Shown in pieces: positions 5,958 through 50,888 of a stretch of DNA of 64,000 nt. Position 1 is the first letter of the stretch; each line of letters starts with the position of its first letter. The DNA comes from Nectonema munidae (lineage: Eukaryota > Nematomorpha > Nectonematoida > Nectonematidae), in contig JAUIRK010000107.1 of the NCBI GenBank assembly GCA_030549495.1, forward strand, positions 1 to 64,000. Reading direction: 5' to 3'. A model generated the notes under the pieces. That model had not been told where the DNA came from. It made no database searches and was given only the letters and a program-made list of their open reading frames with translations. A program made the position numbers and the translations under genes.

Positions 5958-6028
5958 ATGGAGAACATAAAGGTGGTGGCAAGGTGTAGGCCTCTGAGTG
6001 CCAAAGAAAAGAATCAATGTGATGTGCA
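5958..6028 (+). CDS. KIF3B: KIF3B-like exon 1 (start codon, first motor strand)
   Basis: Encodes MENIKVVARCRPLSAKEK and a few more residues. The VxxRCRPxxxKEK signature is the first beta strand and following loop of kinesin-2 motors. The exon ends before gtaaga in phase 2. The ATG is preceded by an in-frame TAG 21 nt upstream, so this is the likely true N-terminus. No ORF longer than 60 codons marks it. Confidence 0.88.

Positions 6029-50888: not shown

What the first reader, a model, noticed from the sequence alone, without database searches (positions are those of the whole stretch)
5958..50888. A complete but divergent KIF3B-type kinesin-2 gene hidden in 19 small exons
All 19 exons join in phase with GT-AG introns to give 667 codons, with kinesin motifs in order from VARCRP to LGYCRP. 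No exon exceeds 206 nt, so ORF scans show only fragments. Since the reading frame, splice sites and key motor residues are intact over 45 kb of repeat-filled DNA, the gene is probably under selection. The divergence (shorter tail, missing acidic post-neck insert, changed invariant residues) suggests either a fast lineage or a lineage-specific paralogue of the canonical subunit.
Basis: partly seen in the sequence, partly recalled or inferred. Interest (0 to 1): 0.8.

Follow-up and report, generated by a model that had tools for sequence, protein, structure and literature searches.

The report
Strongly diverged animal KIF3B motor gene
This is an intact 19-exon gene for one half of kinesin-2, a motor best known for building cilia; in this unidentified animal it and its KIF3A partner have drifted far from other animals, while the two other kinesins compared in the same genome have drifted less.

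Summary
The gene is real. That exon is probably wrong: its donor is poor and it lies in a repeat with another copy in intron 17. A unique exon at 33780-33850 with a strong donor fits instead (674 aa). Stalk exons beat 14 null runs, third-position GC is 0.53 against 0.31 in introns, and there is no inner stop, so it looks selected.

Family: KIF3B by profile (522 against 423 bits for KIF3A; tail 58 against 14). Trees and diagnostic columns do not settle it.

No second KIF3B was recognised, but the direct search did not complete. The genome also has a KIF3A (C25), a probable KAP3 (C718) and IFT57. KIF3A is as diverged as the window gene; kinesin-1 and Eg5 motors are less so. The ATP site is intact; loop-11 glycines are lost in both subunits, and KIF3B lost the acidic hairpin and coil that human KIF3 uses for autoinhibition. 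I read it as the KIF3B of a kinesin-2 under unusual divergence, possibly de-repressed. Organism unidentified; no RNA evidence.

The parts
5958..6028 (+). exon 1, ATG, MENIKVVARCRP
   Evidence: in-frame stop upstream, donor GTAAGA, phase 2
10161..10265 (+). exon 2
   Evidence: profile spliced alignment, phases fit
12073..12197 (+). exon 3, P-loop GHTGSGKT
   Evidence: Pfam Kinesin hit 12071-12202, DP
12711..12916 (+). exon 4, longest (206 nt)
   Evidence: Pfam Kinesin hit, DP
14393..14472 (+). exon 5
14533..14599 (+). exon 6, switch I NEHSSRSH
15789..15893 (+). exon 7, switch II DLAGNE
20554..20683 (+). exon 8, loop 11 / helix 4 / loop 12
   Evidence: Pfam hit 20551-20685, DP
28944..29031 (+). 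exon 9
   Evidence: Pfam hit 28934-29032, DP
31203..31298 (+). exon 10, neck linker and neck
31351..31394 (+). exon 11, neck coil
   Evidence: part of the stalk test
33780..33850 (+). exon 12, preferred: 24-residue post-neck piece
   Evidence: acceptor chosen by the profile run (which ran on to 33904), strong donor and middling acceptor, unique, listed
   Evidence: weak donor and acceptor, inside a repeat copied at 50006-50080
35137..35229 (+). exon 13, stalk coil
38159..38263 (+). exon 14, stalk hinge (HSG in place of VGG)
43407..43526 (+). exon 15, stalk coil
43581..43699 (+). exon 16, C-terminal coil (net charge positive)
   Evidence: start 43593 or 43596 also possible
45462..45584 (+). exon 17, tail helix and hairpin NFLP..EFNASTKEW
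   Evidence: one search took start 45465, which drops one codon
50563..50662 (+). exon 18, SSLGYCRP..YRYK
50712..50888 (+). exon 19, end of tail and TAG
   Evidence: one search aligned it to 50768
46214..49716 (.). (AC)1751.5 array in intron 17

Best explanation
The region is the KIF3B (kinesin-2 beta) gene of an unidentified animal and, as far as I could look, the only one. By what is known of kinesin-2 it pairs through its coiled coil with KIF3A and binds KAP3 with its tail to carry cargo, including intraflagellar transport, towards microtubule plus ends. Shown here: the gene structure, the intact ATP site, a KIF3A gene and probably a KAP3 gene in the same genome, and an IFT57 gene. Inferred: expression, pairing and transport. 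Added inference: the complex evolves under altered constraint. Both motors lost the loop-11 glycine pair, and KIF3B lost the acidic hairpin apex and acidic coil that hold human KIF3 inactive, so this motor may be weakly microtubule-bound and poorly autoinhibited.
For: 19 phase-compatible exons, no inner stop; stalk exons beat 14 of 14 nulls; GC3 0.534 against 0.307; Pfam Kinesin 349 bits (provisional 556-residue product); best PDB match human KIF3B, E 2.6e-94 (same product); KIF3B profile 522 against KIF3A 423 bits, tail 57.8 against 13.7, while C25 gives the reverse, 380 against 423 and 19.3 against 38.7. C25 as KIF3A: of the 120 listed hits all but three (P0001, P0124, P0194) cover 95-100% of the query, and the rows with a subunit-specific name say KIF3A or kinesin-II 85 kDa (names are cut and many rows carry none). 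KAP family hits on C718, E 9.4e-7 and 7e-5, spliced score 508 against five nulls at 346-378. IFT57, E 4.2e-52. Identity over one unbroken motor stretch: own kinesin-1/human 135 of 159, own Eg5/human 110 of 161, window/chimpanzee KIF3B 87 of 161, C25/mouse KIF3A 74 of 163, sponge/chimpanzee KIF3B 137 of 163, Daphnia/mouse KIF3A 126 of 163. Apex charge 0 against -3 to -5 in 115 of 115 parsed; coil +2 against -5 to -1 in 115 of 115.
Against: Trees do not place it firmly; its highest pairwise identity is to the recalled human KIF17 motor (44% over 362 columns), to a KIF3B (51% over 350). Of 61 columns that separate KIF3A from KIF3B, it has 15 KIF3B states, 14 KIF3A states and 32 neither. No RNA. 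Two of seven KIF3B residues named as binding KAP3 are identical, one is a conservative change, and E658, constant in 12 others, is V. Only one IFT gene was tested. Own kinesin-1 is itself long-branched. The 115 reference proteins are among the 120 best database hits and so lean towards canonical ones; no nematode KLP-11 or other fast KIF3B was compared. The KIF3A profile rests on fewer deep lineages than the KIF3B one, and its tail profile on 5 of 12 proteins.
Confidence: 0.8

Rival explanations
1. A lineage-specific paralogue: the genome holds a second, canonical KIF3B that does the usual work, and this copy is free to diverge.
For: High divergence with an intact frame. The protein search meant to find a second copy did not complete, and the assembly may be incomplete.
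Against: 45 Pfam Kinesin matches on 13 contigs; motor pieces from the other 12 contigs were spliced and read and none was recognised as a second kinesin-2 beta. Three of the 12 were compared with solved structures; the rest were judged by eye, and their tails were not examined. The partner KIF3A is as diverged, which a spare copy would not explain.
Confidence: 0.08
2. A gene in decay: kinesin-2 is no longer needed or much less needed, and the frame is intact only because relaxation is recent.
For: 73 of 214 near-invariant columns changed; microtubule-interface changes in both motors.
Against: No stop or frameshift at 49% motor identity, where neutral decay gave at least 6 stops in 200 of 200 runs; ATP-site residues kept; high GC3; the KIF3A frame has no stop either.
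Confidence: 0.09
3. A KIF3A- or KIF17-type kinesin-2 misread as KIF3B.
For: 14 of 61 diagnostic columns have the KIF3A state; KIF3A plus window not rejected, p 0.21, and highest identity in that set is to a recalled KIF17 motor, 44%.
Against: Tail profile 57.8 against 13.7 bits, whole protein 522 against 423; a separate KIF3A exists on C25.
Confidence: 0.03

Closest known systems
KIF3B / KRP95 (kinesin-2 beta) of animals
   Same: Motor, neck, stalk and tail in order; SSLGYCRP..YRYK tail; intact P-loop, switch I, D231/G234/E236 in kinesin-1 numbering.
   Different: 48-50% identity in the motor to five KIF3B (163-169 of 338-340); loop-11 glycines lost, K281 to I; acidic hairpin apex and coil lost; post-neck insert short and not acidic; C-terminal RGLVPK absent.
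KIF3A (kinesin-2 alpha)
   Same: Shares the kinesin-2 motor and coil plan; in this genome it shows parallel loss of the loop-11 glycines (C25).
   Different: Tail of the window gene matches it poorly (13.7 bits).
KIF17 / OSM-3 (homodimeric kinesin-2)
   Same: Kinesin-2 motor; OSM-3 is the third distinct PDB match.
   Different: The window gene has the KIF3B tail. No KIF17-like locus was recognised among the matches, judged mostly by eye; only a recalled human KIF17 motor was compared.

Membership tests
Kinesin superfamily | kinesin motor domain over the curated cut-off | tested here: met
   Pfam PF00225 349.2 bits against cut-off 29.3, positions 1-327 of 327 (provisional product)
Kinesin superfamily | P-loop GxxxxGKT, switch I SSRSH, switch II DxxGxE | tested here: met
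   GHTGSGKT, NEHSSRSH, DLAGNE
Kinesin-2 | closest solved relatives are kinesin-2 | tested here: met
   KIF3B, KIF3C, two OSM-3 sequences and a chain named KINESIN-2 are the first five PDB matches
KIF3B (kinesin-2 beta) | KIF3B-type tail | tested here: met
   tail profile 57.8 bits against 13.7 for KIF3A, the latter built from 5 proteins
KIF3B (kinesin-2 beta) | groups with KIF3B in a tree | tested here: inconclusive
   support 42/16; KIF3A alternative p 0.21; long branches meet
KIF3B (kinesin-2 beta) | KIF3B diagnostic residues | tested here: inconclusive
   15 KIF3B, 14 KIF3A, 32 neither of 61
Heterotrimeric kinesin-2 | KIF3A partner gene in the genome | tested here: met
   C25
Heterotrimeric kinesin-2 | KAP3 gene in the genome | tested here: met
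   C718, two PF05804 stretches over the cut-off, 33.2 and 27.5 against 25.6 bits, one with a TAG inside the stretch; spliced score above 5 of 5 nulls; exon model not reliable, so 'probable'
Heterotrimeric kinesin-2 | KAP3-contact residues of KIF3B (R637, H642, R644, R654, R656, E658, D666) | tested here: inconclusive
   R, K, A, R, K, V, L in the window; list from passages of PMC12551710
Autoinhibited KIF3 (not a defining feature of KIF3B) | acidic hairpin apex E607-E609 and acidic coil | tested here: not met
   A, S, T; apex net 0, coil net +2; roles from passages of PMC12527917
Heterotrimeric kinesin-2 | heterodimerises and moves along microtubules | not testable with these tools
   needs protein

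The most novel reading that the evidence does not exclude
A naturally de-repressed animal kinesin-2: KIF3A and KIF3B were remodelled together at the microtubule interface, and KIF3B lost the electrostatic lock (hairpin apex and coil) that human KIF3 uses to stay off microtubules, so the motor is controlled in some other way or not at all.
Probability: 0.3. Interest if true: 0.6.

Novelty: new variant of a known kind. Interest (0 to 1): 0.4.

Why it matters
The kinesin-2 motor is well conserved among the animals compared here (sponge and chimpanzee KIF3B agree at 137 of 163 positions of one motor stretch). A genome in which both kinesin-2 motors diverged far more than kinesin-1 is a natural experiment on which surfaces of the motor the cilium needs. 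It also offers a natural test of the hairpin model of autoinhibition published in 2025 (PMC12527917, passages seen). For gene finding it shows how a 45-kb gene of small exons, interrupted by kilobase arrays, is missed by ORF scans and how one false exon can enter from a repeat.

Tried and rejected
Alternative exon 50424-50485 (EYDEHWYKL...), suggested by the first spliced alignment with human KIF3B: profile score 14.9, equal to that of the accepted stretch taken alone but below many of 7195 background segments (top 26.1), and weak splice sites; rejected. Reading the 21-bp array 42918-43337 and a transposase-like remnant (38881-38957) as exons: artefact of the first run; with the profile both are gone, but the array was masked in that run. 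Globodera as nearest relative (top hit): the record holds a doubled motor stretch, which inflates its score, and its tail is KIF3A-like by eye. Tree with window gene and C25 together: long branches meet. Kinesin-1 of this genome for taxonomy: the 120 listed hits reach 53-60% identity (spiders, centipedes, molluscs and others), and it stands alone on a long branch. The first kinesin-1 comparison (166 of 195 columns) used a sequence that I had trimmed to well-predicted pieces, which favours it; the unbroken stretch replaces it (untrimmed motor: 198 of 279; full length: 522 of 927). Phage DNA search of 8000-9000: no match. Rfam on the window: nothing over the gathering scores. Paper search kinesin-2 + loop 11 + glycine + microtubule: none.

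Full report
What was checked. The window is C88:1-64000 of an own genome of 211.6 Mb in 748 contigs. A Pfam Kinesin search of that genome scored 48 of 48 candidates and returned 45 matches on 13 contigs, four of them in this window, at 12071-12202, 12710-12916, 20551-20685 and 28934-29032. A spliced alignment of the window to human KIF3B (recalled) and then to a profile of 16 KIF3B/C proteins gave the exons listed under parts; three exon ends were then set by hand to the ATG, the upstream acceptor of exon 17 and the stop. All 18 introns are GT-AG and phases join.

One exon is doubtful. Exon 12 must bridge phase 1 to phase 0 between 31394 and 35137. The rival 33780-33850 has a GTAAGT donor (7.9) and a middling acceptor (4.1, median 7.3), and is unique in the window and 283 kb of loci; the profile run chose the same acceptor, though a later end (33904). 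It encodes 24 residues (DQLMGNVGRDGEKTTVSGNNKASE) where KIF3B has its post-neck insert. I therefore prefer 674 aa. The choice does not touch the motor, hairpin or tail. The comparisons used the 667-residue model; searches used the 674-residue one.

Chance and selection. The stalk, the part least conserved, scores 71.6 against its profile; 14 null runs (reversed profile, reverse complement, 8 column permutations, 4 other regions, one of which still held exon 11) score 29.4 to 44.8. Third codon positions are 53% GC against 31% in introns. In 200 of 200 simulations of unconstrained decay to 49% identity the motor acquired at least 6 stops. The frame has been under selection for most of its divergence; a recent relaxation is not excluded.

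Which kinesin. The provisional 556-residue product matches human KIF3B best among solved structures. Profiles made from 12 KIF3A and 12 KIF3B/C proteins give the full product 423 and 522 bits. Its tail gives 13.7 and 57.8 bits; the KIF3A tail profile could use only 5 of the 12 proteins. From NFLP to SSLGYCRP the tail lines up with the human KIF3B tail without a gap between the two. Against this, ML trees leave it on a very long branch with weak support for KIF3B; its highest pairwise identity is to a recalled KIF17 motor. Of 61 columns fixed differently in 115 KIF3B/C and 114 KIF3A proteins it shows 15 KIF3B, 14 KIF3A and 32 other states. Rows left out: 5 of 120 KIF3B/C hits (P0001 as a chimera, P0036, P0042, P0105, P0111 by length) and 5 of 119 KIF3A hits (by length, and P0124). 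I rest the assignment on the tail and on the existence of a separate KIF3A.

The partners. Contig C25 (minus strand, about 105.9 to 76 kb) encodes a protein whose 120 listed database hits, all but three, cover 95-100% of the query, and whose subunit-specific names are KIF3A or kinesin-II 85 kDa; profile and tail scores agree, and its spliced frame has no stop in 646 codons. Contig C718 has two KAP-family matches over the cut-off, one with a TAG inside the stretch; a spliced alignment to recalled human KIFAP3 scores 508, 222 of 709 identical, against 346-378 for five nulls. An open frame of 365 codons on C641 is IFT57. So the heterotrimer is probably complete and at least one IFT gene is present. 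Other IFT genes were not searched; the dynein search did not complete.

The divergence belongs mostly to kinesin-2. Over one unbroken motor stretch, own kinesin-1 agrees with human KIF5B (recalled) at 135 of 159, own Eg5 with human KIF11 at 110 of 161, the window protein with chimpanzee KIF3B at 87 of 161, C25 with mouse KIF3A at 74 of 163; sponge and copepod KIF3B agree with chimpanzee at 137 and 139 of 163, Daphnia KIF3A with mouse at 126 of 163. An earlier count over 195 columns agrees (166, 109, 98) but used a trimmed kinesin-1. No invertebrate Eg5 was compared on the same stretch; own Eg5 gives 448 bits to human KIF11 and 417 to fly Klp61F. The lineage itself is isolated and its kinesin-1 is long-branched, so part of the divergence is general.

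What changed. The catalytic motifs are kept in both subunits, with single changes beside the key residues. In loop 11 the glycines at kinesin-1 positions 242 and 245 are L and N in the window protein and M and D in C25; LGN 261-263 is LAK and LAS; K281 is I in the window protein and R284 is F in C25. Work read in passages (PMC12527917) reports that KIF3B E607-E609 at a tail hairpin and nearby acidic coil residues hold the motors off microtubules, and that disrupting one hairpin frees the dimer. In the window protein these three are A, S, T. The apex has net charge 0 against -3 to -5 in 115 of 115 KIF3B/C, and the 37-residue coil is +2 against -5 to -1 in 115 of 115. The KIF3A of this genome keeps an acidic apex (DEENGR) and coil (-4; -3 to -2 in 81 KIF3A that could be parsed). 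The stalk hinge is HSG; a loose xGG pattern, sought anywhere in the protein, was found in 110 of 115. That the motor is therefore de-repressed is inference. The references are best hits and lean towards canonical proteins.

KAP3 contacts. Of seven KIF3B residues named in passages of PMC12551710, the window protein has two identical (R637, R654) and one conservative (R656K); E658, constant in the 12 others aligned, is V. KAP3 itself is diverged, so the interface may have changed on both sides; this was not modelled.

Papers. PMC12551710, PMC12527917 and PMC12094185 were seen as passages only. Others were seen in search listings. Cunha 2023 was seen only in a citing passage and a reference list and is otherwise recalled.

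Verdict. An intact, selected, strongly diverged KIF3B orthologue with one exon to correct, not a visible paralogue, within a kinesin-2 that has diverged more than the other kinesins compared from the same animal. Known kind, unusual variant; the regulatory consequence is a testable guess.

Noticed in passing
window 46214-49716: A perfect 3.5-kb (AC)n array, 1751.5 copies at 100% match, sits in intron 17 of the gene.
   Followed up: no
window 53773-64000: A 113-bp satellite, about 91 copies at 97% match, runs to the end of the window just downstream of the gene; it probably explains the strong GC skew there.
   Followed up: no
window 42918-43337: Twenty perfect copies of a 21-bp unit in intron 14, open in several frames and easily mistaken for coding sequence.
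   Followed up: partly
window 38560-39430: Degraded transposase-like stretch in intron 14; resemblance to Tc1/mariner-type elements is recalled, two pieces gave no Pfam family over its cut-off.
   Followed up: partly
window 34166-34240 and 50006-50080: Two copies of a dispersed repeat, 97.3% identical over 75 bp, both inside introns of the gene.
   Followed up: yes
window 45459-45464 and 43591-43595: Closely spaced acceptors (CAGTAG, GAGCAG) at exons 17 and 16 could add or drop one or a few codons.
   Followed up: partly
L039 (C641:1446374-1447396): IFT57 matches the profile at 4-357 of 360 within one open frame of 365 codons, apparently without introns, unlike the finely split kinesin genes.
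   Followed up: partly
L009, L010 (C25): KIF3A of this genome carries about 12 extra residues before KLHLVDLAGSERQ relative to the KIF3A consensus.
   Followed up: no
G000:C97 and C187: Partial kinesin matches that look like Eg5 and kinesin-14 copies elsewhere in the genome (by eye); the C187 piece has an inner stop.
   Followed up: no
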